Shown piece by piece: positions 1,611 to 64,000 of a stretch of DNA of 64,000 bases. The notes beneath the pieces were generated by a model. It did not search any database and was not told where the DNA came from. It saw nothing but the letters and a program-made list of their open reading frames with translations. Numbering within the stretch: the stretch's first letter is position 1; every line of letters starts with the position of its first letter. The stretch comes from Arcuatula senhousia (Eukaryota; Mollusca; Bivalvia; Mytilida; Mytilidae): assembly GCA_963971305.1 (NCBI GenBank), contig OZ020307.1:53565702-53629701 (forward strand). The letters run 5' to 3'. A program made the position numbers and the translations under genes.

Positions 1611-20858
<19,248 letters not shown>

Positions 20859-21902: not shown

Positions 21903-22794
21903 CGTTTTTTGCAGGCAAAAAAAAAACCAAACTTTTAATTCTAAATGTTTCATGCACACACAAACAAAAAAACCCATACATTTTGCCGGTGTTCTATTGT
22001 AGATTTTCCCCCATGCCAGTTTTTCCGGGGGGAAAATCTGGACCGATCCAGTTTTCCCCCCGGAAGAATAGAATCAATCCAGTTTTTCCCCCGGGGAAAG
22101 ATAGGATCAGTCCAGTTTTTCCCCCTTTATAAGCCAAAAGCTCAATTTTCCCCCTTACGATGTAACGTCACCGACGTAACGATAAAATAAAAAAAAAATT
22201 CGATATTTCTATGAATCAAGCGATTAAAGCTGGGCTGTGCTTTCGAGATAAATTAACACAAAGACTAGGTTGTTAATACCGGTATATAGTATATACTCCC
22301 AAACTTCCACATCGGAAAACAGCCAGCAGTTCTGATCGCTGTTTTGCAGCTGGATCTAGACTCAAATATGTAATATAAGATTCAAAACTTAACATAAAAT
22401 GTCAAAGAAGACCCTTTTCTTAAGAGTGCAAACATAATCCTTGATAAAGACAAATTATTTAATGACACGTAATTTTCGTCCCGCAAACGACACCAAAAAA
22501 GAAATGTTTAAAGGTTTATGGGTCTAAACAACTCCTAACATACATTTTGCCATATTAAACAATCTCGAAAATTCATATCATTCTTTTTGCGGATCTGGCA
22601 GTATCTTATATACGGACGGACTTAACACTTAATGCCCTATTCCGATATGTCGTCTTTGGAACATTCAAACTTATAATAAAAACTAGTGTAGATTACACAA
22701 CCTACATGTACTCTATATAATTCCTTGACTATATATAAACAGGGCCTTCTAATTAGTTATGGAAGGCCCTGATATAAACGACAATTAAAACAAG

Positions 22795-23760
22795 AGCCGA
22801 TAAAAATAATAGTAATTCACATAATGTGAATGAAATTCATTATGGTTTTATTAATAAAACGCCAATTGAAAAACTTCATCTTTCCTTTTGTAAAAATATT
22901 TTAGGGACAAAAAAAAGTTCCTCAAACTTGTCAGTAAGAGCTGATCTTGGAAGACTTCCAATAGAGTCTTTTATTCTTATACAAGCTCTCAACTATCTGA
23001 TAAGATTAGATAATGAAGATAATAATCCTTTATTAAAAGAATCTTTTCAATTAAATAAAGATCTAGATGAAGAAGGAATTTATACATGGTATACTTTTGT
23101 AAAACAATCTTCAGATATAATTGGCTTTAATGTGAATGAAACAAAAATATGTACTAACAAAAATGAAGTGCCAAATGCAAAGACACCATTAAAAAGAAAG
23201 TTTTGCATTACTATGAAAACATGTTTACAAAATGTACTTCTATGATAAAAGAGTTAAAAGAAGAAAACAAAATTTTTCTTTACAAAATTATTAAAAATAA
23301 TGAATTTGAGTGTGAAAAATATCTTCATCCCCCAAATAAATTTAAAAGACAACTTATTGCAAAGTTTCGTATGAGTGATCATACACTTATGATAAACTTG
23401 GAAGATATCAAAATATTCCTCGTTCTCTCAGAATTTGCAAACTCTGTAATGAAATTGACAATGAAATGCATTTTTTCTTCACTTGTAAATATAATGAAAA
23501 TATACGAATTAGTTTTTATTTAAACTTTAATAACCATCATGAAAATTTTGAAAGTTTGAATAATTTTGATAAAATAAATGTCATCTTAAACCCATCAACA
23601 CCAACCCAAATTAAGGCTGTATCGTCTTTTATAGAACAGTCATTAGAACTGAGTAAGGAAGACCCTGGTCAGTCTTAGTTTTCTAAATTGTTATTATGTC
23701 TTTATATATGTTTATATGTTATGTGATTTGTTATTGTATCGCCATGACATGTAGTCTTGT
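22795..23760 (+). pseudogene. 5'-truncated non-LTR retrotransposon, RT C-terminus
   Basis: Three overlapping plus-strand frames joined by frameshifts. They encode LHLSFCKNILGTKKSSSN and DLGRLPIESFILIQALNYL, then a Cys/His segment (CKLCNEI...MHFFFTCKYNENIR). This order is typical of the region after the reverse transcriptase domain in LINE ORF2 proteins. No catalytic RT motif remains, so the copy is 5'-truncated and dead. It ends near AATAAAGTTTCATT without a long poly(A). The clade cannot be set from this part. Confidence 0.7.
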
Positions 23761-27430: not shown

Positions 27431-27544
27431 CTGGCTAAGATTTGGTTGTTATATGGGTCTTCATTTAATAATGTATGTACGACTAACTTCAACAACAGCT
27501 CTTACTACCACGGATTGCACCTATTGTAAGAAATAGAAATTACA

Positions 27545-27878
27545 TTAAAGTTACAGGCAATAAATTTTGCTAAGCCTGGCGCGAGCTTCATCTACTCAAG
27601 GCTCATCAGAGGTGCTCTAGTCAAAAGAATGAAAATGCAAAACAAAACATGAGTATGAATTAACAGCACAGAACTGACAATTAAACCACATAACTCCGAA
27701 ACGGGACCCAATTCATGACTAAAATCATTTTTTGTCTGTGGTAGGAAAAACCTTCCAGTTTTTATAATTTTGAAATAAACACAGTCAATTTCAATATTAA
27801 TTTACAGTATTATCTTCATGTTGATACCGGAGCGGGATAACCTCGGGGAATTAAAACTGTTTCAGCAGCGCTAACATC
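27545..27878 (-). repeat. decayed hammerhead-bearing repeat unit
   Basis: Matches the minus-strand units at 60634-61800 over its length (AATTTTGCTAAGCCTGGCGC ... CGGGGAATTAAAACTGTTTC). The ribozyme region keeps CTGATGA but has lost base pairs and the GAAA core context. The 10.2-kb element is inserted at its end. Confidence 0.7.
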
Positions 27879-27883
27879 AAATT

Positions 27884-28475
27884 CACCGGGTATAAGCGTT
27901 ACCGCGGGAGAGTCGCTAAAACGTAGGAGAGAGTCGCTTTGAACGTAGGGGAGAGTCGATATTTGACCTAGATCGAAGCACACCAGGTATGTAAATGATA
28001 AAATCATCTATTTTCATTGATCAAATGTTACAAATAAATATTGCACGGAACATTAGAATTATTTAAGAATGTGTGCACGCTAAAATTACCTCCCAGAACC
28101 TTCCATTTCATACCAAACACCTCGAACTTTTACGGGCGGTCAGTGTAAATTTGGTGACATCGCATCTTAAAATATGATTTTCTCCACAATAAATACATTA
28201 TATGACAATTGCATGCACTCAGTATATGCACAAGATTGATATCTAAAAGAGATACTTCACCGTTACCCTTTACAAAGTCATAATACAATTTTATTCGTTA
28301 ATTTTTCAACAACAACGTAAGTGCCGTAGGGGAGAGTCGATTCGAATTGTCTTGAACGTAGGGGAAAGTCGATTCGGATTGTTGTGAACATTGCATTATT
28401 TGCTTTCAATCACTTTTTTTTACAACAAACATTGCAAAACCTTGAAAAAGGTATCATTGGATTATGTTATGGTTT
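27884..28475 (+). repeat. left long terminal inverted repeat
   Basis: Pairs with 37480-38088. GTAGGGGAGAGTCG-type motifs lie at about 27920, 27945, 28327 and 28360. Confidence 0.9.
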
Positions 28476-31100
28476 AACTGTAAGTGCTGTTAGATATTAT
28501 CAATGTTAACAGCATATAATTATGTAGGTCTGATAGCAACATGATAGCAAAGGCTCCCACCACTTCCAGCCCCTTGCTCAATTTTTCTGCACCTAGTCCT
28601 TCATGCAATATATAACCAGTCAGACAGGTGGTGACAAAATATTATCTCCCTTGTAAATATTTTGTATGTCTAAACTGATCCGAAAAACACACCATTTTGA
28701 ATGACGCGGTGAGCTGAAATCACCAACTTAATCTTTTGATTAATAAAAAGTAGGTCATGGTTATTTTCAAATTTGGGTACAAGTGAATGGACAAACTATT
28801 GTTCTTTTTTCTTAGTCAGGATGTTTTACGCATAGAATAATAATTTGTGACAAAAAAGGGAATTTATTATCTCTAAGGAATAACCGGAACTCTATAAAGG
28901 TGATAAACATGTTGAATTTAAAAAATAATGGTAAGTGCGACGGGTTACATACTTTGACAGATGACGACCAATCTTATGCTTTTTTTGTTGACGAAATTTT
29001 AAGGAAATCGGAGAAAAATGTTTTTTTTGTCACAAGCAAGTCTAAAACGTTGCTAGGCAAATGAAGGGAGACGATTACAGTTTTACAAATCGAACAAACC
29101 TCACTTAATAGACCCCCCTTCTAAAACGTCATTTTACATTTGCTTATTATCATTTTATTATAAAGACATGCATTATATTAATAAAAAGTAAAATTTAAAC
29201 AGTTTCACCAGTGAAGGCCTTATATATTGCAGAATTAAAGAAAAAATATTTTAGGAAGTCGAGTAGACCATTGCTATTTTTAGCTGGGTATGAGATACTC
29301 TCAATGTTTATTTATTTTATGAATGAAATTTCTATATTTAGAAAGGGGGATTCACAAATAACTTATGAAATTAGCACAACTTTGACAATCATTTTTATCA
29401 ATACCGCTATAGCGACGGGTTCAGGATTTTTTTATCAGAAAGAATGGAGTCTTATCTGTTGGATATATTTTTTTTCAGATTTTTAGGAGCATGATGTTTT
29501 ATTTGTCACAAAGGAAATCAGACCCCATAATATTACTAAACATGAGAAATGTGCTCTTTTCACGCTGTTAATTTAATAAACCAAGGCAAATTCGGTGTTG
29601 TTTACTTTCATTTTACATATTCTATATCACAATTTATTTTAAAAGTTGCTCTAATAAACTTTTTAATGCCCATAGTTACTACGTAAACATGCCGAATCAA
29701 ATTCTACCTTATTTACTGAAGAGCGCATATTCTTTTGTCTCGTTCTGACCACCTTTCTGACTGTAACGCCCTATTTGATCCCAATCCCCAGAATCAGATA
29801 GACCAACATTGATTATTGAAAAATTTCCCGACGAATATCTTATGATTTTGAGATTGATTTTTTTAATTAAAGTGGGCTTCTCTTTTTTCTTATCTGATTT
29901 CGGGCAAAAGTGGCAATCTTCCCCCTCTCAGTTGCAAATTATCCGTTGGACCTTTTGTTTTTTAATTCGTAAAACAAAGTTTAACCTGTTTTTATTTTAT
30001 TTTATTTCAGCTTACACATATATGTGACGTCCCTTAGGTAACGGTGAAATGGAATTTGGTAAATAATACTCATTAGTTCATGAATAGCTTATAACCTTCC
30101 CGACTACTGTTCCGTTCGGATTTTCCAACAGTTGTATGGTGGTCACTGTATTCTGTATAAGGACTGAATTATGGTGATGTGGATGGTGGACATCATAAAG
30201 TGGAAAGGACAATACTGGTTGTTATTTGGTGTTCCATTTTAAATGACTGATTAAACTTCCAGAATATTTGTGTAATTGATGCATAAAATAAATGTTTTAT
30301 ATGTATAACTTCATTTTTTCACTTCTTAAATTTTCGTTTATGGATATATAGATGTGCAGAGAAATGGCAAACTGAGGACAGTTCAAAACATTTACCTGTG
30401 CTTGACTTTTAAAATAGAAGAAATGGGCAGACAGCAGTCTCATCTTAGTCTGTTGTCCATCGTGTTTTTCTAACACAAAACATAACACGTTTGTGTGACA
30501 TACATAGGTTTTATATTGGCCTTTTTGCTTATTGTTGCATTTTAGCTGTTCGTGGTCATATTAAAGTGTCCGCTTTCCCTGCCTTTAACTAAAGCGGAGC
30601 AACTCGAAAAAAATTATGTAATACTAATTCTGCTCGAAATCAAAATAATTTAACAAGAATGACCAAATATTTTTTCAAACACGTAAAACATTATCATCTG
30701 GAAACCTCGAAAGACAGACAGGACAAGCATGATGCACTACATAGGTAGGGAATAATTTATGGTGACTTTTGTTTGTTATTATTATGATGCATACGTGTAT
30801 AAAGTTTTATGATGATCTCATAGTTGATCATAGTTCTTACATAGAAAACATCGCCTGTAAATAACCTATATAGCGTTGCGCGGGCGTAAAACACCAACTC
30901 CTCACTCACTCACTACATAGAAAACCATTTTAACTAGCATAACCAAAGTAACCAAACAGCATATCCAAATTGGATTTTGGTATTGTATTTTTAACAAGAA
31001 GGCCGTTAGTCTGATTTGGGACTGACGGACGGACAAATAGACTAGGACCTTATATATGAACCTCTTTCGTAGGTGGGACATACAGTTACTACATTTACTC
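28476..31100. other. interior of the 10.2-kb element, no gene recognised
   Basis: AT-rich. Open frames such as 29211-29486 have no recognisable domain and a low-complexity hydrophobic composition. Confidence 0.45.
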
Positions 31101-31403
31101 TTTACTAAAAGAGAGGCTCTCAGAAGCCTGAATCGATCACCTGGGTCTCTTTTTATGAGCAATAGCCCTAATAAGGGTCCATTGAAAGGGACTTTTGAAA
31201 AGCTAATTGAGATAAAAGGTTAAGCAATGCAATACTTGTCAATCTTAATGACAAAAAAACATAAAAAAATGCTTTCTTCCTACCCCAGACATAGGTTGAT
31301 CATCTTAGTTATAATTTGGTTCCCCATTTTGGTAATTTTGGTTTTATTGTTCTATGCTCTTCATATTCATATAGTGTTTGGCATTTTCAATATTTTTGGT
31401 AGA

Positions 31404-31447
31404 GCGCCTCTGATGAGTCTTCAATAGACGAAACGCGCGTCAGGCGT
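31404..31447 (+). ncRNA. hammerhead ribozyme
   Basis: Core CTGATGA 31410-31416. Stem II GTCT/AGAC (31417-31420 with 31426-31429), loop TCAAT. GAAA 31430-31433. Stem III AC/GT around loop GCGC. Cleavage triplet GTC 31439-31441. Stem I GCGCCT (31404-31409) pairs with AGGCGT (31442-31447). All core positions match the hammerhead consensus; predicted cut after 31441. Confidence 0.93.
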
Positions 31448-31760
31448 AGCAAAATTTATTGTCTGGAACTTTGTTGTCATTTTTATTTCGAACACACGTG
31501 AAGGTTAGCACTGCTGGTGGAGTTTAAATTCCCCGAGGTTAGCCCGCTCCGGCACCAACACTTTTGTGTTGGAGAACACATCAAAACTTAAAATTATCTG
31601 TATAAATTTCAAAATTGTCTAACCCTAAGGTTCTTCCTACCCCAGACATAGGTTGATCATCTTAGTTATAATTTGGTTCCCCATTTTGGTAATTTTGGTT
31701 TTATTGTTCTATGCTCTTCATATTCATATAGTGTTTGGCATTTTCAATATTTTTGGTAGA

Positions 31761-31804
31761 GCGCCTCTGATGAGTCTTCAATAGACGAAACGCGCGTCAG
31801 GCGT
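31761..31804 (+). ncRNA. hammerhead ribozyme, second unit
   Basis: Identical to the copy at 31404, offset by 357 bp. CTGATGA at 31767-31773, cut predicted after 31798. Confidence 0.93.
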
Positions 31805-32364
31805 AGCAAAATTTATTGTCTGGAACTTTGTTGTCATTTTTATTTTTTCCTCGATCTTAACCCCTATTAAGGGTCATCTGACAAGATCGAACCAATGCAG
31901 ACTTTTGAAGAGCTCCGTGAACTGAAGATTCTCGATCTGCAATATATTTTATTCTGTAGGGTAAAAACTTGAAAATCCGCTATTTTTTTTATCTTTAAAA
32001 GGACCTTAACCCCTATGAGAAGTCATTTGACACCTTCGACCAAAGAGAAACTTTTGTAGATCTGATGAGGCTTAAAAAGGTAGGTTGCATCAGGCTATTT
32101 CTATATCTTAAAGGGTTTTTTATTTACAAGCCAAAACAGTAATCTGACTCTCCGAGTTAATTTATAGCAACGGCAGCCATGTGTTTTCAGTGCATGGATC
32201 AAAAATCAGAACTCAACTGTTATGCAGCAGGACACCTTAAGAACCAATCATACAAAGTTTCATTGAATTCTGTTCAGAAGTTTCAATGGAGAAATTCTTT
32301 TTTAAAATGTTAACGGACGACGACCGACGACGACCGACGACGAACAATTGATGGTACAGTAATA

Positions 32365-32600
32365 GGTCACATGGACTTATCCTTGTTTAGAATGGGGTAT
32401 ATCTGTGACTATTTCAGGACTGGATTTGAATTATATGCATTTCATTTAGACCATGGACCAATTGCAGAACCACGAGCAGCACCTACTGGCCTCGTTGAAA
32501 GCTGCTGGCGGTTGTTCATTGTGGTTATTCTAAATTGTCGCTTGTTATGGGAGCTGTGTCGCGTACACCTATTCCATATCTCATTATTTTCTATTTTGTG
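32365..32600 (+). repeat. interspersed repeat (GCTGCTGGCGGTTG family)
   Basis: ACTATTTCAGGACTGGATTT at about 32411 and AAGCTGCTGGCGGTTG at about 32502, as at 19895. Confidence 0.75.
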
Positions 32601-33297
32601 GTTCCAGATGAGCTAAAAAACTGTTCCTACAATTCTGTCTCTAAACTGAACACTAATGAACGACATTGAAATTAATTCATATTCATACAATTTTAATAAA
32701 ATTTAAACATCTTCGGCACACAAGACACTACTCGTCAAACACCAATAGTCTTTTATAGTAGAATTTTTATTTCATCTTTTCTATGGCTTTGTCGAACTGG
32801 CAATCAAACTGGAAGGTTCAATCTGCTTTGATACAAATGTACTTCCAAATTTGATATTCTTCTCCTTCGCATCTTTTTTTTTACTTTATCAAACGAATCA
32901 CTTCTGAAAAAAAAATGAAAACCATAACTATCATACTTTAGTCTTGGAAAAAAAAATTCATAATATGCAAAAATAAGTACTTCTTATCTTAAATAACAGA
33001 TAATTAGATCAACCTAACTTTTTTAACGACAATCCAAAACAATATGCAATAGAAAAGTGGGAGTTCATATGACACAAGGAATTACAAATGAACAGAAGGC
33101 AATGTATTCTAAAGACGGTGCTATGGAGCAAGAAATGGCAACTACGTATATAAGTGGGGGTGTCAGGCAAGGACTGGGAAATTTACAGATATCCTTGTGC
33201 ATACAAGTGGTGACAATCAGATGCAAGGAATGACAAACGAGGTGAAAACTCGGAATTTTGAGTGGGCGCAGTAGACATCCGGAGACCAACTGGATAG
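32601..33297. other. no feature recognised
   Basis: Between the preceding repeat and the Harbinger left end; no coding or repeat signal that I can name. Confidence 0.4.
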
Positions 33298-33942
33298 GGG
33301 GCCGTATTCATAAAACAACTTAAGTTAAGGTTTTCCTAAGGAAACACTTAAGTTAAGGAAACTCTGCCCATATTACTTAAGTGGTATTCATAAAACATCT
33401 TAAACTAAGAATTTCCTAAGGAAAACCTTAGTATAAGGAAACTCCGCCCATAATACTTAAGTGATATTCATAAAACTTCTTACTCTAAGGAAACACTTAA
33501 GTGTCCCCTTAAATCTAAGGCCGTGTTTACACTAGAGGAAAAAGTAGCTATATGGGTACCTTAAATTGTTAAAACATTAATCCATTTATTCGCAGATAAT
33601 TTTAAAATTTCTTTTATCATCATATTCATATCAAATATTATTACAAAAAGTGTTCTAGTACATGAAGATAAAACAAACTATCCGTCAAAATATGTACGAT
33701 TGTATCTAATAAGTAAAACTTGTCTAACACCATTTAAAATGATTGAAAGAAAATTAAAGATCAACATGATCAACATACACGTACGTTTGTAATGAAGATG
33801 CATGACAAACTTGGAATCGTCCAATTATTTACCATTTACTGTGCCCAGTCAAGTGACCTATATGCTTAATGTAGGACGTTTTCGTATACTGAGAGCTAAC
33901 CAAAGAGCATTACGGAGAAAGCGGATATTCAGAGGTAGAACC

Positions 33943-34203
33943 ACAGGGACTTGCTCCCTTCTAGAGTCAATGTGCGGTACCAAAAAAAAAAAACACAAGG
34001 GAGATACTACTTTCACCACCAGCCCTTTTCTTCAATTCTATTTTCTTTTACCAAAATCATTGATCTCATACCTTTTCCTATATAATTCGTTTCACGGATG
34101 ATTTCCAAAACCCCCCAAATATTTATGTCTTCATTCATTGCATTTTGGACCCAAAATCAATCTTTGTTCGGGCACTTTAGTAAAATTTGGCATTTGATTG
34201 TGA
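33943..34203. mobile_element. one-arm foldback insertion in the transposase
   Basis: ACAGGGACTTGCTCCC at the left and about 260 bp similar to the left arm of 9820-10485. Flanked by TAGAACC on both sides (33936-33942 and 34204-34210). The transposase motif RGRT continues on the far side. Confidence 0.85.
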
Positions 34204-34793
34204 TAGAACCAATCCACTGGATAAAATTTTTTGAAAAATATAGCTTTGACAGTCAAGCAATTTTGATGATCACTGATGTCATTAATGAAGATATCCAAAA
34301 TATTACTAACAGAAACCACGCATTAACCCCTCTACTCAAAGTGTTGGTTGCATTGAGGTTCTATGTCAAAATGTGATTGCCGATACTTTTGGATTATCTC
34401 AGCCCAGTGTTTGTAGATTTATAAATGACGTAACTAATGCAAGTGTGAGGAAGTCTAAAGAATACATTTAATTCCCTTACGCAGCACATAAAGTGGCCAC
34501 TATCAAAATAGATTTTTATTCTGTTGCTAGCTTTCCTGGAATTATTGGAATAATAGATGGCACACACGTTCATATTCAAGCCCCTGCTGAACACGAAGAA
34601 CAATACATCAACAGAAAATGATATCATTCTATAAACGTGCAAGTAGTAGTTGATAGTAACAATAGGTTTATCAATGTAGTAGCAAAGTGGCCTGGAAATA
34701 CTCATGACTCTCGAGTTTTCAAGGATAGTGGACTGTGTCGCTTTTTGTTTAAAAATAATGTAGATCGACACTTACTGGGTGACAGTGGGTATG

Positions 34794-35801
34794 TATGGGC
34801 AGCCATTCGGGCAAAAATTAAAAAAAAAAATGAAAACAGACGATAAACTGAAAACACACAAAATCACGGAAAACAGACAGAAAAACAGACAAAAATTACA
34901 AAAAAACAGACATAAATTTTACTAACAGACAGACGATTCTGTAAAACAGACAAAATATGAAAACGGACAAAAATTTTAAAAACCGACAAAAAATACAAAA
35001 ACAGACAAATATTTTTTTACAGACAGATGATTCAGTAAAACAGACAAAATATGAAAACAGACACAAATTTTACAAACAGACACCGAATTCAAAAACAGAC
35101 GTTTTTTTAAAAAAACAGTCGAAAAACAGCTGTATATCATGTATATCAGAATCTTGGCCTTGGGAGGTAGAAGATGACTGAGCCTGTGTGTGAAATGAGT
35201 CGCCAAGTTCAGTGGGAGCCTTCCCAATCAGATCGGATGCTTCTTTCAATAACCTTACAGCATCATTTACTGCCATTTTTCCAAACAATGCTAGATTGAA
35301 TGGTGCGACCTCTAGCGTTGCTTTTTTAAAGTTTACGTTATTTTCTTAGTACGTCTGTTTATAAAAAAAAAATTCTGAGACTGTTTCATATTGTTGTGTC
35401 TGGTTTACTATAAAATCGTCTGTTTGTTAGTAAAATTTATGCCTGTTTTTTTTTTAATTTTCATGTTTTATTTTAAAACTAATGTCTGTTTTGTGTGTTT
35501 TTTTGTCTGTTTTTAAAAACGTCTGTTTTTGAATTTGGTGTCTGTTTTATAAATTTACCTCTGTTTTTTAAATTTTTGTCTGTTTTCATATTTTGTCTGT
35601 TTTACAGAATCGTCTGTCTGTAAGTAAAATATATGTCTGTTTTTATATTTTTTGTCTGTTTTTAAAATTTGTGTCTGTTTTCTGTGATTTTGTGTCTGTT
35701 TTCAGTTTATCGTCTGTTTTTCATTATTTTGTTAATTTTTGCCAGAATGGCTGCCCATTTTTTCATTATTTTGTTAATTTTTGCCCGAATTGCTGCCCAT
35801 A
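34794..35801. mobile_element. 1008-bp TIR element of CAGACA/TGTCTG repeats
   Basis: Ends TATGGGCAGCCATTCGGGC and the inverse form ending GCTGCCCATA, flanked by GGTATG (34788-34793 and 35802-35807). The left half is rich in AAACAGACAAAAAT, the right half in the inverse TGTCTGTTTTTAAAA, so the whole element can fold. It interrupts the transposase just after GDSGY. Confidence 0.88.
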
Positions 35802-36759
35802 GGTATGCATGTAAGTCATTCCTTGTTACACCATACATCATACATGCGACCAAACACGAGGAACGAAAACCGCTACAATAACGCTCTTAAAAAACAAGGT
35901 GTGCTGTAGAAAGGACAATTGGTCAATGGAAAAGACGTTTTCATTGTTTACATGGAGAACTTGGGCTACATCAAAGGTACTCTTGTAGAGTCATTACAGC
36001 TTGTGCAGCCCTACATAACATGGCTAAGGACAGAAACATGCCTTTGGATTTTATTTTGGACCGAAACATTGCGCAAATAATTTCTTTCCTCTTTTCAAAT
36101 TCCCCCGTTAGTATGTTTTTTCTTTGTCTGTCCAATTTGGCTTTCTATTCGGCATGTCTAATACTAAAGTGTACATACAGTACTAATGCAATTCCCAAGT
36201 AATTTGTCCCTTATATTGCTCATGTACAAAGTGGAGATGGATTTTGGTTTTCTTTATTAGATACAAATGAATGAAGGAAATGTTTTTAATTTTATCAAAA
36301 ACAAATAAATATCTATAAAAACTTTAAAATCCATATTTTGAATTATATTTTGATTCAAAATAAGACACATGACAATTCATTTAATTAACCCCTTAAGCAA
36401 GCTAAACAAGTTTGACAAATAGGCTCGTGCAACTTGTATGAGCGCCAAATTGTCTTAGTATACATTTACATGATTTAAATCATGGCGATGGTTGGCCTTT
36501 AATCTTTCGAATTCACTCCAATTTTGTAACGTATCTTTGCAAGAAAGATCAAGCAAATAACGCCAAAGAGATATATCAAGTACATTCACGTCAAATTATA
36601 GGGAAAATATAGATGAGTTCCGTTTGTCAAGTACTTAAGTATTCCTTAGTTAAGGAGATACTTAAGTATCTTTATGAATACCGATAAAAATATTTCCTTT
36701 ACTAAGTTTTAGTAATACTTAAGTTAAGAAGTTTTGAGAATACGGGCCCAGAAGCCCGC

Positions 36760-37130
36760 AGGATATATGCGTATATTTATTTGCTCTTCGGCCCGACAAT
36801 GCATGGACGGGAAAAATATCAAAGGGATATAGGCAATGTGATTAAAGGTTAAAGGTTGGGGTTTAGAAAGAACTGACACTTTCTACCGTCAATACATGTA
36901 TCAAGCTGTCACAGTTGATAATACAGGTTGTAATAACTTTCAAGGTTTTGCAATTTATTTATTCGTATATCTGGGGATCAGGATCAATGAGGGCGTTATA
37001 TATTGCACGAACGACTAGGTAATGGAAGTTTGAGCAAGGGTTTGGAAGTTGTGGGAGTCCTTGATCTTAGACCTACAAGTATGCTGTTAACGTGGATAAT
37101 GTAGGTTTTGGTATCAACACGTACAATATA
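36760..37130. other. no feature recognised
   Basis: Interior of the 10.2-kb element right of the Harbinger copy; no coding or repeat signal seen. Confidence 0.4.
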
Positions 37131-37270
37131 TAGAATATCATATGGGTGTTTTCATATCGTATCTCATAACTACCCGAGACGCCCATATCATCCCGAGAGC
37201 TTTAGCTCGAGGGCATGATATTGGTCAAGGGTTGTTATGGGTACGATATGAAAACACCAATATTATATTC
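37131..37270. mobile_element. 140-bp hairpin MITE
   Basis: GGTGTTTTCATATCGTA at the left pairs with TACGATATGAAAACACC at the right. The inner stem includes CCCGAGAGCT/AGCTCGAGGG. TATA-rich flanks. Confidence 0.8.
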
Positions 37271-37479
37271 TGTTTATCAAATATTTGAAAATAAATATGT
37301 TTTGTCTATATTTACTCAAATCACGTGACTTAACCTAAAGGTGCGTTATTGATCACATGGCTTAACCTAAAGGTCTAGGGGTGCGTTATGGATGATATGG
37401 AAAAACAGTGATATGACCCAAACCATTCATCTTGTATCATATATTAAAAAAACGTACATAATTAAACAAATGTATGATA

Positions 37480-38088
37480 AAAAACCATAACATAATCTTA
37501 TGAGTCATTTTTTTTTCAAGATTTTGCAACGTTTGTTGTTGTAAACTTGATTGAAAGCCAATATAATGCAACTCTCTCTTATGTTCACAACAATCCGAAT
37601 CGACTCTCCCCTACGTTCAAGACAATTCGAAACGACTCTCCCCTACGGCACTTACGTTGTTGTTGAAAAATTAACGAATAAAATTGTATTATGACTTTGT
37701 AAAGGGTAACGGTGAAGTATCTCTTTTAGATATCAATATTGTGCATATACTGAGTGCATGCAATTGTCATATAATGTATTTGTTGTGGAGAAAATCAGAT
37801 TTTAAGATGCGATGTCACAAAATTTACACTGACCGCCCGGAAAAGTTCGAGGTGTTTGGTATAAAATGGAAGGTTCTGGGGGGTAATTTTAGCGTGTACA
37901 CATTCTTAAATAATTCTAATGTTCCGTGCAATATTTATTTGTAACATTTGATCAATGAAAATAGATGATTTTATCATTTACATACCTGGTGTGCTTCGAT
38001 CTAGGTCAAATATCGACTCTCCCCTACGTTCAAAGCGGCTCTCCCCTACGTTTTAGCGACTCTCCCGCGGTAACGCTTATACCCGGTG
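37480..38088 (-). repeat. right long terminal inverted repeat
   Basis: Inverse of 27884-28475; ends CGCTTATACCCGGTG next to AAATT. Confidence 0.9.
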
Positions 38089-38559
38089 AAATTGATTGCC
38101 TTGAACAAATTGAGCCAAGAGCGTCTCTCTTAAATAGATCTCACCAGTCTCTTATTCCAGGTCCCAGTTGCTTAGTTGTTTGCACCTTTTGCCGTTCGTC
38201 ACCGTCGTATATTAGATATACAGGTCTATGAGACATGTTGGCCTGTCACAATAAGGGAGATAATTCTGATTAACAACCAATGTGCATTCCATGGCTTACC
38301 TTTATAATCATTAAGGAATGTCTCTTTTGTGGTTTATGTTTATGGTAAAATAAACAAAAGGAAATTGAAAATAAAGACGAACGAAATCCTTTCTTGAAAA
38401 AAAAATTGATTTTAATATTTGATAACTGAATTCAGTACCATATGTAGAAACGAAATGAAAGCACGGGTCTTTCCTATTCTTTTAAATAAAAAACTATTTT
38501 CATTCAAATATAATTAAATTTAAACTTTTAACTGGTTACCCCCTAAGGTATTATTCCTT

Positions 38560-58100: not shown

Positions 58101-61100
58101 AGCTGAGAAGTCGGGTACAAAAAAAAGTGTGACAGACAGACACCAGCATTTCTATGTCCCTGCTCCGAATTGTGGTGGGGGACAAGATAATTGCCTTGTG
58201 GTATCACAGTTAGGGAAATGATGAGAATACTGAAACTATTTTCAATTAATCAAATGAATCCAATGACATTGCAAATAAACATTAATTTATACCATCAGTC
58301 CATGTATGATGAGCCTGATAGACTCTTTGTACGATCCTTGTATTATAACCTGGTTACCAAGGACAACATGATGTGTCAGGGTGTGGAAACTCTCTTCGCC
58401 AAGTACCTGTAATGAAAATGTAAAAAAAAACAACATGTATTTTGAGTTGAACAGACACAAAAGAATGTGTCAGAACCTCATTTTTCTTAGTATTTGTGAA
58501 GAGTTTCTGCAAAAAGTATAATAGTTTCTGATAAACAGAATGCAAAATTTTGTTATCAGGTGATCAACATCATGTTTGGTTAATTGGTTTGCCTAATGGG
58601 TTCACAAAACATGATAAAAGAAAAATATGTCCAAAAGACATAATGCCCCATCAACCAACATTTGGGACATACAGACAAACGGATGGACTTGAACACTACA
58701 TGTCCCCTACTTTTGTAGATGGGACACAAAAACATCATATATTTCTAGAGAAGAAGATGTTTATAATAATATTATCATTGGGATAAAATTTTTCTACCGG
58801 TAGTTAAGAGTACAAAAATATTATGTGAAGACAATTTTTAATGGATTTTAAATCTTACAATACTCTCTTTCCATGGGTCACAAATTGAAGGATGCTTGCT
58901 GTTTTCAAATGTATATTTTTTTATTGCAACTGATTTATATTACATTGTAGGCTGTATCATACAAGTACACTTATCCTGCATCTCATGATTATATATATCT
59001 ATACTACTAAAATAACGAAGCGTTTTTTCTAGCCGGATTGCAGCCTAAACAACAATTGCTACGACCAAGCTTCATATATCAAAAACAGGGGATGGTCGTG
59101 CCCTTTAAAAATTTGATTAGCGTATGTGCAATTATGACTGCAATTTGCTAATTAACCTAATTAATTAATCCGGAAAACCTAAAGCCGTCATCGTTCCAGC
59201 ATTAGAATGATGGAAATTATTTCCCCTGTTTTCTGACAATTACAAAAAAAAATCCCACAAAACTTTTCCATTAATTTTGCTATATATGTATATTTAAAAT
59301 ATTTTATATAAAAGGTTATATTGGTAAATTCACTATAAAAATGTATGCAAAAAATTTTTATCGTTAAAAATTGCAGCTTGATAGAAAAATAAAAACTATG
59401 TTGAAGTTAACGACCCATGGCAAATAGAGAGTCTATTGTAATTTATTACTGCTAATAGTCGCTGCAAAGGCTCACAGCACACAAAGCAGGTCTAATATAG
59501 TTTATTACTGCTAATAGTCGCTGCAGGGCTCACAGCCTGTAGACACGACATCAACAAGTTTAATAACAAATGTGCGAAGCGATTGATCAAAACTGACCCT
59601 GCCACTGGACATTTGTTTTATTTGCAGATGGGGTAACAAAAACCAAGATAACAAGATATAACACCTTAAAAGTTTGTCTCGCCTGCCGGCATCATCCGAA
59701 ACAATTATTCTTTCTTACTTCAACTATACTTTGCAATTATAAGGATTTTCAGTTTCTCAGATCAAAAGGTGTTATAGAACTTAAACATTTCATATATATG
59801 CAATAACAATAATCAAAGTCAATCAACCGAAAATTCAAGGTATAGGTCAAAAGATGGGTATGCAACTGTGCTAGGCTGCTACTGGGGCATATTATCAATC
59901 ATTATCTTTTTCTTATATCTGTTTATTTGTTGCTCATGCTGCCCTTAGGGGCCCTTGATTGGACAATAAAATATGTTCTATGTTCTATGTTCTATGTATA
60001 CCAAGTTTTATCAATCTAGAACTTATAGTTATTGGGATATGGAGGTGCTCGCAAACCTTACCCCTGCTTTTATATTTATATTGAAAATTTCAGTTCCTCA
60101 ACCGGAAAATCAAGGTCAAGGTCAAAAGATTGGGATGAAATGATGCTAAGCTACTACTAGGGCATATGCATGACCAAGTTTCATGGACCTACGACCTATA
60201 GTTCTTGAGATATGGATGTGCTCCCATAAAACCTGACCCAAAAGGTTAACGCCGCCGCCGACGGTAAAGTAACACCTATGTCTCGCAGACGAGACAATAA
60301 ACTAAAAACTTACTTACAGATAAATATACCGTATAACCTTCAATTTGCGATTAGCACAACCAGGTAAGGTCATACAAATCCTATGTTTTTGTTGTGTGGT
60401 CTATTTTTCAAAGCAACGCAACGATTGATTCTCCCGCGAATTAACGGGTTTTTCCTAGTTAAGTTTAATTGCATTGATTACTCTTACTTACAAAATGAAC
60501 CAAATTGAATTCTCCACAATTATACTGTTAACCAGGATATTTTTGTGCTGTCATTTTTTTTGGGTGGTGAATGTGTAAATGGCGAAAAAAAAAACTGTTC
60601 TGACTATTTCCTGGTTTACAGTATATAGAAATACAAATGACAACAAAGTTCCAGACAATAAATTTTGCTACGCCTGATGCGCATTTCGTCTATTCAAGAC
60701 TCATCAGAGGCGCTCTACCAAATATATTGAAAATGCCAAACACTTTATGATTATGAAGAGCATAAAACAGTAAAACCAAAAATACCAAACTGGGGAACCA
60801 AATTATAACTAAGATGATCAACCTATGTCTGGGGTAGGAAGAACCTTAGGGTTTAAACAATTATGAAATTTAAACAGATAATTTAAAGCTTTGATGTGTT
60901 CTCCAACACAAAAGTGTTGGTGTCGGAGCGGGCTAACCTCGGGGAATTAAAACTCCACCAGCAGTGCTAACCTTCACGTGTGTTCGAAATACAAATGACA
61001 ACAAAGTTCCAGACAATAAATTTTGCTACGCCTGACGCGCGTTTTGTCTATTTAAGACTCATCAAAGGCGCTCTACCAAAACTATTGAAAATGCCAAACA

Positions 61101-63350
61101 CTTTATGATTATGAAGAGCATAGAACAGTAAAACCAATAATTCCAAACTGGGGAATCAAATTATAACTAAGATGATCAACCTATGTCTGGGGTAGGAAGA
61201 ACCTTAGGGTTTAAACAATTATGAAATTTAAACGGATAATTTAAAGCTTTGATGTTGTGTTGGTGCCGGAGCTGGCTAACTTCGGGGAATTAAAACTCCA
61301 CCAGCATTGGGGGGGGGGGGGTTAGGAGGGGTATGATCCCGAAGTCCCGGCAAATTAAACAAGAAATCCTGGATTCCCGCGAAAATAAATATGTGATTCC
61401 TGCATCCCGATAATGAAAATGGCTAAATCCCGTTCCCGTTAAGGGTTTTCCCGAATTCCCGTTGAAATAAATGGGCTTTCTTGCTGTCCCGCAAAAAGTC
61501 CTACTGACCCTCAGCAGTGCTAACCTTCACGGGTGTTCGAAATACAAATGACAACAAAGTTCCAGACAATAAATTTTGGTACGCCTGACCCGCGTTTCGT
61601 CTATTCAAGACTCATCAGAGGCGCTCTATTATTATAATATTGAAAATGCCAAACACTTTATGATTATGAAGAGCATAGAACAGTAAAACCAAAAATACCA
61701 AACTGGGGAACCAAATTATAACTAAGATGATCAACCTATGTCTGAGGTAGGAAGAACCTTAGGGTTTAAACAATTATGAAATTTAAACGGATAATTTGAG
61801 AAAAGTATATATGCCTTACTTGTTGAAGAAGTCTCAGATTGTGAATATTTTCGGTACCAGTAGGAGGGATATCTTGTTCCACAGTTTCCTCCCTTGGTGA
61901 TGATACAGGAGTTAGTTCCCCTTCTTCAGATTCACTAACACTGACAGATTTTGTAAAAAGTTTTATAAAGCCTTCAGGTGTCTCTGAAATAAACAGATCG
62001 TATCTATAAATAAGTAAATTTCCCCAAAAAGTATTAAACAAAAATAGTTTTGAAAAGTATTTGTTGCTGAAGTGGCCTTATTTTATGATGTTGTGCAAAA
62101 AATATATAAGTAATTTGATTTAATTCTATAATCATTATAACTACATCCACTTAAATCTGACTTCTGTTATATGTCTTCCATGTTTTATCTTTTCTCTTGG
62201 ACATTAAGACTGATCCTACAAGTTCAGTAATTTTGTAATTATACCTTTATTTCAAACTTCAGAACAGAATATGAAAACTGCCCGCCTTTTTGTTTAAAAA
62301 AAGCCAGAATTCATTCATAAAAAAAAACTGCAGTAAATGTACACTTCTATAGGGTTGTTGCAATAATATTCCTACTCTATTTCTATAACAATTGAAAATT
62401 TATCCAATGCCAAACTTTAAAATACCTGGGCATGTGAGAATTTTTACTACAACTTGTATTAAATGTCAAGTCATAACGCACCTGTTGCTAGTTACGACCT
62501 GAAATCATCCAGTCACTGCCTGATTTACTCAAAAAGTCAATACTATTGGTTGACAATGTAGAAATTCAAAGGTAGTGTGTGCAAAATTTAATTCAAATGC
62601 TTAGTTTTTATTTTGAATCTAATTGGTTCATAGTGAGTGACCAGGCTTAAATTGGGAAGGAATTATTTTACCGACTCAAATACATGTATTCTAGACTATT
62701 GATTATTTTTCTATTCCAGTAATACATTTTATTGTTGCATTTACAATTTTTGAAATGTTAAACTCAAATTAGTTAAAAATTTTATGAGGTTTAAAATATT
62801 CAAAGAATTAATTTAATTACGTTCAAATTACAACCGAAAAACTTTGTACAGTAAAATATTTAACAGGAAAAGTACCTTCTTGTTTTTCCATGTCTATGAT
62901 AGAATCCTCAGTCGGTGGCCCCTCCAAGAGTGTTTCAGTTATCCTATTACTGCAAGCTTTCAATATCCATACGAAAGCAAGGTGTAAAATCTTGAATATG
63001 TTTTTATCATTCGTCAATTCATTCAAAGATCTAGCAGGCTTGTTGCCTCCCCTTAATACCAATCCACGAGTAGCACTAGATGCCATTCGGTTAGATTTTG
63101 GGAATTTTATGATTTCTTCATCATAAACCTTACTAGCCTTTGTTTGTAAATGTTCTATCACTATTTTCAAATGTGGGACCAGGAACGGCCAAGAGTTTAA
63201 TAGATAGATTTTATCCATCATCATGACGATTATGCTGTATTTCCGTTGGAAGCCTCGAGCGTGACTGTCTTTAAGTTGAAATGTATAGCTTAAAACATGG
63301 CCTTGTTGGTCATTCCCGAAAAATATTGCACCTTCTTTTCCGGGACAAAC
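52015..63350 (-). CDS. FLCN: folliculin, 5'-incomplete gene
   Basis: Folliculin, the Birt-Hogg-Dube protein. In other animals it works with FNIP as a GTPase-activating protein for RagC/D at the lysosome and in AMPK/mTORC1 and TFE3/TFEB control. Coding exons in transcript order: 62876-63350, 61820-61983, 58293-58406, 55450-55696, 53462-53564, 52015-52198. Splice phases agree at all five junctions: 428 residues to TGA. The first visible exon covers the end of the longin domain, with DSHARGFQRKYSI (the stretch expected to hold the human Arg164 arginine finger) and KIYLLNSWPFL. The acidic Ser-rich linker follows (SESEEGELTPVSS). The DENN part holds VVLGNQVII, WKCNFLGLSAD, CLICLKEEW and the C-terminal FWTSGLSSQYR. 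Human FLCN is 579 residues, so about 130 N-terminal residues are missing; no matching exon was found in 63351-64000. Introns hold a Helitron, a retrozyme array and a tandem-core element. Confidence 0.95.
52156..52353 (-). repeat. tandem copies of FLCN terminal-exon acceptor
   Basis: TTTACTGAAAT acceptors at 52199, 52278 and 52347, each followed on the minus strand by ACAAGTTT(A/T)CCAAAGC and an AGCATCTCA/AGAATCTCA match. Only the one at 52199 opens the full frame. Confidence 0.8.
52755..52990. mobile_element. Tc1/mariner-like MITE with TA duplication
   Basis: CACTAAGAGACATACC at the left and GGTATGTCTCTTGGTG at the right, TIRs about 45 bp with the inner match GATAGTGGTACACCAC. TA on both sides (52753-52754 and 52991-52992). 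Confidence 0.85.
53462..53564 (-). CDS. FLCN: FLCN exon (DENN, penultimate)
   Basis: 103 nt: PNVLNKIESSLKNAEFTDGV then MEQCLICLKEEWM, split codons on both sides; donor GTAAGC. The junction forms the conserved EEWMNKVKVL. Confidence 0.94.
53565..54780. other. FLCN intron, nothing recognised
   Basis: AT-rich; no exon or repeat boundary identified. Confidence 0.45.
54790..55335 (-). repeat. two copies of an interspersed repeat
   Basis: 54790-55020 (GGCATTCGATTATAAAAAGT ... CAGTTCCTGCCTGCTATAGC) and 55140-55330 (AAGGTGTACCAAAGGGG ... CGTTGCCAAAGATCGA), as at 26270 and 49770. Confidence 0.7.
55450..55696 (-). CDS. FLCN: FLCN exon (DENN)
   Basis: MLVPKGCCRPTFYTDEYQQS then WKCNFLGL through MASRTRLLDK plus one base; donor GTTAGT. 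The ATG here is an internal Met, not a start. Confidence 0.95.
55697..56270. other. FLCN intron, nothing recognised
   Basis: AT-rich intron without a supportable feature. Confidence 0.4.
56272..57766 (+). mobile_element. TCACCTGG-family element, about 155-bp core, copy 3
   Basis: Left GAGGCTCCCAGGAGCCTGAA (hairpin) then TCACCTGG. Units carry GAGCTGAACATTTAAGCAAG and GGGGTCATCTGACAACTT. A (GACGACG)n tract lies at about 57685-57720 and CCAGGTGAGCT at the right end. Best-preserved copy of this family here. Confidence 0.88.
57767..58292. other. FLCN intron, nothing firm
   Basis: A fragment at 58100-58190 (GTGACAGACAGACACCAGCA) looks like a repeat end; otherwise unremarkable. Confidence 0.4.
58293..58406 (-). 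CDS. FLCN: FLCN exon (DENN start)
   Basis: Thirty-eight codons, VLGEESFHTLTHHVVLGNQV IIQGSYKESIRLIIHGLM. Found from the VLG-SF...LGNQVI motif; phase 0 both sides; donor GTATAA. Confidence 0.9.
58407..58997. other. FLCN intron, repeat fragment
   Basis: GGGACATACAGACAAACGGA at about 58662 resembles the microsatellite end of the tandem-core elements. No exon. Confidence 0.4.
59673..60297 (+). mobile_element. TGTCTCGCC-family element inside the Helitron
   Basis: TGTCTCGCCTGCCGGC at the left, a GCCGCCGCCGACGG tract and CGCAGACGAGACA at the right. Core units about as at 11601, interrupted at about 59890-59998 by a LINE 3' tail. Confidence 0.8.
59890..59998 (+). mobile_element. LINE 3'-end fragment with TTCTATG tail
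   Basis: CCCTTGATTGGACAATAAAA followed by repeated TATGTTC units. This is the short tandem tail typical of some non-LTR retrotransposons. It splits a core unit of the host element. Confidence 0.6.
60670..60713 (-). ncRNA. hammerhead ribozyme, unit 1 (stem III covariant)
   Basis: CTGATGA (60707-60701), stem II GTCT/AGAC with loop TGAAT, GAAA. Stem III is AT/AT instead of AC/GT: both partners changed together. Cleavage triplet ATC; predicted cut between 60676 and 60675. Stem I GCGCCT/AGGCGT intact. Confidence 0.93.
61028..61071 (-). ncRNA. hammerhead ribozyme, unit 2, core-mutated
   Basis: TTGATGA replaces CTGATGA and AAAA replaces GAAA. Both changed bases (C3 and G12) are essential in hammerheads, so this copy should be inactive. 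Confidence 0.85.
61307..61511. mobile_element. 205-bp insertion in retrozyme unit 2
   Basis: Begins TTGGGGG(n) and ends GACCCT, flanked by CAGCA on both sides (61302-61306 and 61512-61516). The interior repeats TCCCG motifs. The retrozyme unit continues in register across it. Confidence 0.8.
61581..61624 (-). ncRNA. hammerhead ribozyme, unit 3
   Basis: CTGATGA (61618-61612), stem II GTCT/AGAC, GAAAC, loop GCGG, GTC, stem I GCGCCT/AGGCGT. Core intact; cut predicted between 61587 and 61586. Confidence 0.92.
61820..61983 (-). CDS. FLCN: FLCN exon (acidic linker)
   Basis: TPEGFIKLFTKSVSVSESEE to NIHNLRLLQQ; donor GTAAGG. The end of a retrozyme-like array lies only about 20 bp inside the following intron. 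Confidence 0.93.
61984..62875. other. FLCN intron, nothing recognised
   Basis: AT-rich, no repeat or exon seen. Confidence 0.45.
62876..63350 (-). CDS. FLCN: FLCN exon (longin end), first visible
   Basis: Begins VCPGKEGAIFFGNDQQGHVL at acceptor TTACAG (63352-63351) and runs 158 codons plus one base to MEKQEE; donor GTACTT. Contains ARGFQRKYSIIVMMMDKIY and LLEGPPTEDSI. Confidence 0.96.
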
Positions 63351-64000
63351 CTGTAAGTCAAAAACAAAAGATTATATTCATCCTACACCGGTTAAGATTC
63401 GAGAAAACAATATAATACAATGTATAGTGTAAATAAATTGAAAAGAAATTTGCTTGAAAGTTTATAATTCTAGAATGTACTATCATGAACATGTACTCTC
63501 TAACTTTCACCTTCTCCTAGCTGATTCTAAATCTGCAATTACAAGTAGCAATGTGATATTACATACCGATATACTTACATTTAATTGCATACATTGTTTC
63601 AACTTAGAGCATTGGTTACAAATAAAGGTTACAAAAATACAGAACTTGGAAGATTGATATCAGATATTCATGAGAAAAGACAAAACAAAGGACATATTGG
63701 AAAATTGAAGATCGCAATGGTCCTGAGACTCCTGACTTGGTACAGGCAATACAAAAAGAAATGATGTGTTAAAATGAAAGAATAATTGTGGTTTTGGAGT
63801 TCTCCATAAAAAAAATAAAGGATCATATCTATAATCTTATCAAATGGCCATGTAGAGATACAGGGATGAAAGGTTTGAAGGCAACTGATCATTTGGGCAT
63901 AGGAATCAGAGGTCTAGTGGTGGGACAGGACATGTGGGTATAAAGATAGCTGAGGTCAGAGAATTGGGATATGGTAGGTGAAGTTCCAACCTTGTAACAT
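63351..64000. other. FLCN 5' intron, nothing recognised
   Basis: Upstream FLCN exons (N-terminal longin part) were looked for on the minus strand and not found; they should lie beyond the right edge. Confidence 0.45.

What the first reader, a model, noticed from the sequence alone, without database searches (positions are those of the whole stretch)
31274..31845. Tandem 357-bp repeat with two perfect hammerhead ribozymes (retrozyme candidate)
Both units carry every conserved hammerhead nucleotide (CTGATGA, GAAA, GTC). Stem I is 6 bp, stem II 4 bp with a 5-nt loop, and stem III only 2 bp. A transcript would cut at 31441 and 31798 and release a 357-nt RNA that could circularise. Short stem III hammerheads acting as tandem copies are known from metazoan retrozymes and Penelope-like elements.
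Basis: partly seen in the sequence, partly recalled or inferred. Interest (0 to 1): 0.9.

Follow-up and report, generated by a model that had tools for sequence, protein, structure and literature searches.

The report
Animal retrozyme with hammerhead self-cutters
This is a small non-coding jumping element of an animal genome, built of repeats that each carry a self-cutting RNA, of a kind already known from mussels; many of its copies stop at one fixed point, which hints at how it is copied into new places.

Summary
Window 31274-31845 is 1.60 copies of a 357-bp unit. Each copy carries an Rfam type I hammerhead (31404-31447, 31761-31804; 36.0 bits, cut-off 34), with predicted cuts after 31441 and 31798. 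It belongs to a large family in this 1.04-Gb animal genome and fits the published metazoan non-LTR retrozymes; the closest case is a Mytilus family of 350-390-bp repeats found as circular RNA. New member of a known kind.

What I did not find in print is the footprint. In 34 of 40 arrays read, the 3' end lies at one unit position, 47-48 nt past the ribozyme cut; 5' ends are spread evenly, copy number is fractional, and target-site duplications do not exceed chance. ATT is enriched before the 5' junction. Penelope-like elements (PLEs) of the same genome also end at preferred sites past their hammerheads, and a PLE enzyme is known in vitro to start copying internally and to cut at ATT. I infer that a PLE-type enzyme copies the retrozyme circle from a fixed start. 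Not proven: no end sequence shared with a PLE was found, no RNA was examined, and twelve other fragments met in passing end elsewhere, among them one well-preserved copy.

The parts
31274..31845 (+). retrozyme insert, 572 bp, 1.60 units of 357 bp
31274..31488 (+). first copy of the 215-bp repeated part
31489..31630 (+). rest of the unit, present once here
31631..31845 (+). second copy of the 215-bp repeated part
31404..31447 (+). type I hammerhead, predicted cut after 31441
   Evidence: fold by hand
31761..31804 (+). type I hammerhead, predicted cut after 31798
31845..31846 (+). 3' junction, unit position u357/u1, 47-48 nt past the cut; inferred start of reverse transcription
60628..61797 (-). 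second retrozyme array, with a ~200-bp foreign stretch at 61309-61512, same 3' end
27528..27875 (-). decayed single unit, 72% identity, same 3' end, no Rfam match
27879..38093 (.). DNA transposon with inverted ends (27879-28616 against 37481-38093) that hosts the retrozyme

Best explanation
A genomic copy of a metazoan non-LTR retrozyme. Tandem transcripts are cut by the hammerheads into 357-nt RNAs, which a host ligase closes into circles. A PLE-type reverse transcriptase with endonuclease nicks AT-rich DNA and begins copying the circle at a fixed internal point 47-48 nt past the ribozyme cut, goes round one or more times and stops anywhere. This gives inserts with one 3' end, random 5' ends and fractional copy number. 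Shown here by sequence: repeat, ribozyme motif, family, end pattern, one empty site, AT-rich target. Inferred: cleavage, circle (from the published mussel case) and the enzyme. Membership in the retrozymes I hold at about 0.93; the confidence below is for the whole chain.
For: Hammerheads and tandem unit; 3' ends within u355-u4 in 34 of 40 arrays, 37 of 40 within u355-u12, Rayleigh p 6e-14, 5' ends uniform, KS p 0.74; 8 of 8 loci chosen by ribozyme score alone have an end at u356-u8 and both copies in L096 end at u356 or u1; 8 of 8 fetched relatives of the host transposon lack the insert; no target-site duplication beyond chance; ATT before the 5' junction in 7 of 39, background 3.5%, p 0.0004; units alike within arrays, 1.6% against 3.3% between, nearest neighbour in the same array for 83% of 108 monomers; PLEs of the genome end at preferred sites past their hammerheads; PLE enzyme with internal start and ATT cutting in vitro (PMC11167929).
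Against: No 3' terminus shared with the PLE regions read (20 regions). Twelve other fragments in the fetched DNA end elsewhere: 11 far from u357, one at u350; most are short or decayed, but one 95%-identical copy on C11 starts at u76 and ends at u72. Three of the 40 arrays end at u95, u220 and u229. The 40 were picked by a query that itself ends at u357. Some arrays are as varied inside as between arrays (L051 3.6%, L030 3.4%). The predicted fold hides the hammerhead. The distance past the cut (47-48) is not that of the PLEs (about 60, 100, 160 or 200). Later homogenisation of arrays would mimic circle copying.
Confidence: 0.62

Rival explanations
1. Same enzyme class, but the template is a long tandem transcript that escaped ribozyme cutting, not a circle.
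For: In vitro the Anolis PLE works on unprocessed RNA and ribozyme mutants do not change insertion (PMC11167929). It gives the same ends.
Against: Units of one array resemble each other more than those of other arrays; L031 has 8 full units without a difference. A copied mixed array would keep its differences, though homogenisation could erase them.
Confidence: 0.2
2. Mobilised by a LINE-type enzyme, like a SINE: fixed 3' end, 5' truncation.
For: Fixed 3' and random 5' ends are also the LINE pattern (general knowledge).
Against: No target-site duplication beyond chance, at most TTTC at the one empty site, no tail of A or of short repeats at the 3' end. Some LINEs make none or short ones, so this is not excluded; LINE 3' ends of this genome were not examined.
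Confidence: 0.12
3. An ordinary satellite that spreads by unequal crossing over or by re-insertion of DNA circles; the hammerhead is a passenger.
For: Tandem arrays; the same insertion has 1.6 units in one host-transposon copy and 2.6 in the other; the C11 copy that starts at u76 and ends at u72 would fit a re-inserted circle.
Against: Both ends should then be random or equal in phase; the 3' ends are not.
Confidence: 0.04
4. An LTR element (TRIM or plant-type retrozyme) with 215-bp terminal repeats.
For: In the window alone it looks like repeat, core, repeat, with a possible 4-bp duplication TTTC.
Against: In other arrays the repeated part has every phase and length; the ends are not TG..CA; the hammerhead is type I, not III.
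Confidence: 0.02

Closest known systems
Metazoan non-LTR retrozymes, Mytilus galloprovincialis family (PMC7229834)
   Same: Type I hammerhead, repeats of about 350-390 bp, low GC, thousands of copies, no coding; sizes match (DRtz_Mg353 there, 357 here).
   Different: Their circles and cleavage were shown; here only sequence. A fixed 3' insertion point is not described in the parts read (1-4 of 6). Their sequences could not be compared here, so sameness of family is open.
Penelope-like elements with hammerheads (PMC11167929 and the genome's own PLEs)
   Same: Hammerhead near the insertion end, preferred 3' ends downstream of the cut, AT-rich target, tandem and truncated copies.
   Different: PLEs encode RT and GIY-YIG and carry minimal hammerheads without stem III; the retrozyme is non-coding, has a 2-bp stem III and another terminal sequence.
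Plant LTR retrozymes (described in PMC7229834 and PMC7761336)
   Same: Non-coding element whose ribozymes flank a unit released as a circle.
   Different: Type III hammerheads, true LTRs with PBS and PPT, 4-bp duplications.

Membership tests
Metazoan non-LTR retrozyme | type I hammerhead | tested here: met
   RF00163, 36.0 bits, cut-off 34
Metazoan non-LTR retrozyme | tandem unit of 150-450 bp, low GC | tested here: met
   357 bp, GC 0.38
Metazoan non-LTR retrozyme | no protein-coding region | tested here: met
   no stop-to-stop frame of 90 codons or more lies in 31274-31845
Metazoan non-LTR retrozyme | many dispersed copies in tandem | tested here: met
   130 matches from 38 of 2451 candidates; 40 arrays read
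Metazoan non-LTR retrozyme | no LTR, PBS or PPT | tested here: inconclusive
   the LTR-like look is undone by variable 5' ends; PBS and PPT were not searched for
Metazoan non-LTR retrozyme | target-site duplications, when present, longer than 4 bp | tested here: inconclusive
   none beyond chance; at most TTTC at the empty site
Metazoan non-LTR retrozyme | self-cleavage and abundant circular RNA | not testable with these tools
   no RNA data
Penelope-like element | ORF with RT and GIY-YIG | tested here: not met
   no long frame in the element
Penelope-like element (works like, insertion) | preferred 3' end internal to the template, past the hammerhead, at AT-rich DNA | tested here: met
   34 of 40 arrays at u355-u4; ATT enriched; exceptions
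Plant LTR retrozyme | type III hammerhead within true LTRs | tested here: not met
   type I match; repeated part varies in phase and length

The most novel reading that the evidence does not exclude
The genomic footprint shows how animal retrozymes move: a PLE enzyme acts in trans, starts at one site on the retrozyme circle a fixed distance past the ribozyme cut, and copies it round and round into AT-rich DNA. This explains fractional tandem arrays with one 3' end and without target-site duplications.
Probability: 0.45. Interest if true: 0.72.

Novelty: new member of a known kind. Interest (0 to 1): 0.5.

Why it matters
Which machinery moves animal retrozymes is open: a 2020 review says that their repeats show no conserved motif that would help deduce it (PMC7761336, section 9). 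A preferred junction 47-48 nt past the ribozyme, seen in this family down to about 72-76% identity, is such a mark. It turns the PLE proposal of the 2020 paper into a direct test with purified enzyme and circle. My paper searches listed none on it by title or abstract; they cover open-licence papers only.

Tried and rejected
Relatives elsewhere: 7 viral contigs match the hammerhead core pattern, but likeness stops at 26-38 nt and two of them carry a ribozyme over the cut-off, one beside a run of tRNA genes; I take them for phages. Prokaryote genomes: 0. Family PF26215, named from recall, is not in the library.

A heap of 5' ends near the cut site (10 of 39 within 36 nt) is not significant (simulated p 0.19; 0.06 for the 18 arrays of 1.6-2.6 units). 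Opposed pairs like those of the PLE family were looked for: L043 has distant opposite pieces, L022 a 24-nt one, L096 is tail to tail with 237 bp between. A terminus shared with PLEs was looked for and not found; a short likeness in L076 by eye was not tested. Helitron set aside: random 5' ends and no A|T junction. Selection on the ribozyme could not be shown: mean minor-base frequency 0.016 in it, 0.019 elsewhere; 147 of 357 windows of that length are as low. Covariation is weak: 2 of 17 pairs with a double change, reached by 18 of 500 shuffles.

Dropped rows: L016 was left out where arrays had to be independent, as it shares its insertion with the window copy. Of 122 monomers 3 were lost by shared names in L018. 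The last part lists 12 fragments that were not among the 40 arrays nor the ribozyme-chosen loci: ends u30, u72, u75, u97, u109, u113, u125, u203, u237, u239, u285, u350. Of the 64 RF00163 matches I read 8 loci and, in L096, two more. L093's family was not searched in the genome, the tool being busy.

Full report
What is there. Two identical 215-bp stretches, 31274-31488 and 31631-31845, lie 357 bp apart with 142 bp between. Rfam finds a type I hammerhead in each (36.0 bits, cut-off 34), with predicted cuts after 31441 and 31798. Stem III has two pairs and the loop GCGC; the 2020 paper describes two pairs capped by a tetraloop for one axolotl hammerhead and calls it similar to invertebrate ones.

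More copies. In the window a second array (61797-60628, minus) and a decayed unit (27875-27528, minus) share the same 3' end. In the whole genome (1,036,387,356 bases, 1803 contigs) a 571-base query gave 130 matches, with 38 of 2451 first-look candidates scored, so counts are lower bounds. RF00163 gave 64 matches with 74 of 145145 candidates scored, 62 over the cut-off. The 8 loci of these that were delivered all belong to the same repeat family, best identity about 76-94%. The host is an animal (Pfam folliculin and CRAL-TRIO exons); that it is a bivalve is my recollection of such repeats, not a result.

Ends. I fetched 37 places and with the two other window copies read 40 arrays. Their 3' ends fall within unit positions u355-u4 in 34 of 40 and u355-u12 in 37 of 40; the rest are u95, u220 and u229, of which the last (L018) may be cut by a later insertion. 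With L016 left out, 5' ends are uniform (KS p 0.74) and 3' ends are not (Rayleigh p 6e-14). The query ended at u357, which could favour such arrays. As a check, the 8 loci chosen by ribozyme score have ends at u356-u8 in 8 of 8 (L060 has in addition a piece that ends at u97), and the two copies in L096, also reached by ribozyme matches, end at u1 and u356. Against this, a scan of the fetched DNA shows 12 further fragments with other ends, one at u350 and 11 farther off. Most are short or 75-80% identical, where the end of similarity need not be a junction, but one 95% copy on C11 (about 31477487-31478014) runs from u76 to u72. So the 3' end is strongly preferred, not universal. Copy number in the arrays runs from 0.97 to 14.81. 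The repeat-core-repeat look of the window copy is thus an accident of where copying stopped, not a pair of LTRs.

Insertion. The window copy sits in a DNA transposon with inverted ends, 27879-38093, whose relative on C11 has the retrozyme at the same spot with 2.6 units in place of 1.6. The left flank occurs at 38 further places among 40 scored of 619 candidates. I fetched eight; 8 of 8 lack the retrozyme. The empty site shows a clean insertion with at most TTTC shared by both sides. Over the arrays, duplications do not exceed shuffled pairs: 0 of 40 of 6 bp or more; mean 3.6 against 3.5 in 33 arrays when the borders may shift. The three bases before the 5' junction are ATT in 7 of 39, background 3.5% (p 0.0004), ATG in 4 of 39 (p 0.01); TTT, TAT and AAT are not enriched. 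I noticed ATT by eye before testing it.

Template. Monomers differ by 1.6% within and 3.3% between arrays, 0 of 1000 label shuffles as low; the nearest neighbour lies in the same array for 83% of 108 monomers, 3.6% in shuffles. L031 has 8 full units without a difference, while L051 and L030 are as varied as different arrays. This fits copying of one circle, though homogenisation could look alike. A linear, ribozyme-cut monomer cannot be the template, since copying from the start point would run out after 47-48 nt.

The likely enzyme. The genome has 140 matches to GIY-YIG (150 of 1106 candidates scored), many in frames of 900-1000 codons that lie in tandem or opposed. One such frame, L095, has both RT and GIY-YIG; L077 has GIY-YIG only by Pfam. 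In the 20 regions that I read, 10 showed a hammerhead-like motif by regular expression, eight of them with GAAATA and so without a stem III. In the family of L079, apart from the query itself, 11 of 44 rows end 63-66 nt past the predicted cut, 31 end at 144-181 and one ends before it. In that of L076, 6 of 45 rows end at 59-63 and 15 at 156-164; 18 hit another part of the query, 5 end elsewhere, one is the query. In that of L086, 39 of 40 end at 194-225, 10 of them at 199, while L087 leaves L086 at about 101. These families were not all checked for RT. Frangieh and others found in vitro that a PLE protein of Anolis starts reverse transcription at two adjacent internal sites (by their numbers 85-92 nt past its ribozyme cut), prefers AT-rich DNA with ATT, and that genomic copies end at those sites (PMC11167929, parts 1-3 of 4 read). 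The retrozyme shows the same kind of footprint at 47-48 nt. It does not share a terminal sequence with the PLEs read, so the partner is not named, and a LINE is not excluded.

Against. The 357-nt circle is not more stable than shuffles (-75.6 kcal/mol, z -0.72, 22 of 100 shuffles as low), and the local best fold is not the hammerhead (-15.6 against -9.3 kcal/mol; tertiary contacts are not counted). The authors note the same of some mussel circles. Conservation and covariation give little support.

Known or new. By sequence the element belongs with the metazoan non-LTR retrozymes; the Mytilus case has about 5000 hammerheads, repeats of 350-390 bp and abundant circles (PMC7229834, parts 1-4 of 6 read). 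The review says that animal retrozymes show no motif to betray their helper (PMC7761336, section 9 and passages read). A Limnoperna satellite paper was only searched for terms (PMC12818792): 0 mentions of hammerhead, retrozyme or 357. The other papers were seen as listings only.

Noticed in passing
window 27879-38093; C11 about 31481862-31488432: DNA transposon with long inverted ends, relatives at 38 further places, carrying retrozyme and nested inserts; the insert 33302-36749 holds a DDE_Tnp_4 piece at 35891-36199.
   Followed up: partly
window 60628-61819 minus: A retrozyme array starts about 22 nt after what looks like a splice donor, upstream of folliculin exons on the same strand (62823-63371); the exon itself was read by eye.
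   Followed up: partly
G000, families of L079, L086, L076: PLE families with two preferred 3' ends; in the L076 family opposed pairs in which one copy has the long and the other the short end, as if both strands of one target were primed.
   Followed up: partly
C3:56567155-56568190, C8:36552797-36553832: Pieces of the L076 family in tandem about 806 bp apart; possibly a larger retrozyme-like derivative of a PLE.
   Followed up: no
C11 about 31477487-31478014: Retrozyme copy that begins and ends at the small hairpin u67-u82, unlike the others.
   Followed up: no
L001-L007 (viral contigs): Hammerhead cores in 7 viral contigs; L006 and L007 reach the Rfam cut-off, L006 beside a run of tRNA genes.
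   Followed up: partly
window 61309-61512: A foreign stretch of about 200 bp with a run of C inside the second retrozyme array.
   Followed up: no
window 3556-3927 minus; 22778-23678 plus: A CRAL-TRIO exon, and frames that look by eye like the tail of a non-LTR retrotransposon, without a Pfam match.
   Followed up: no
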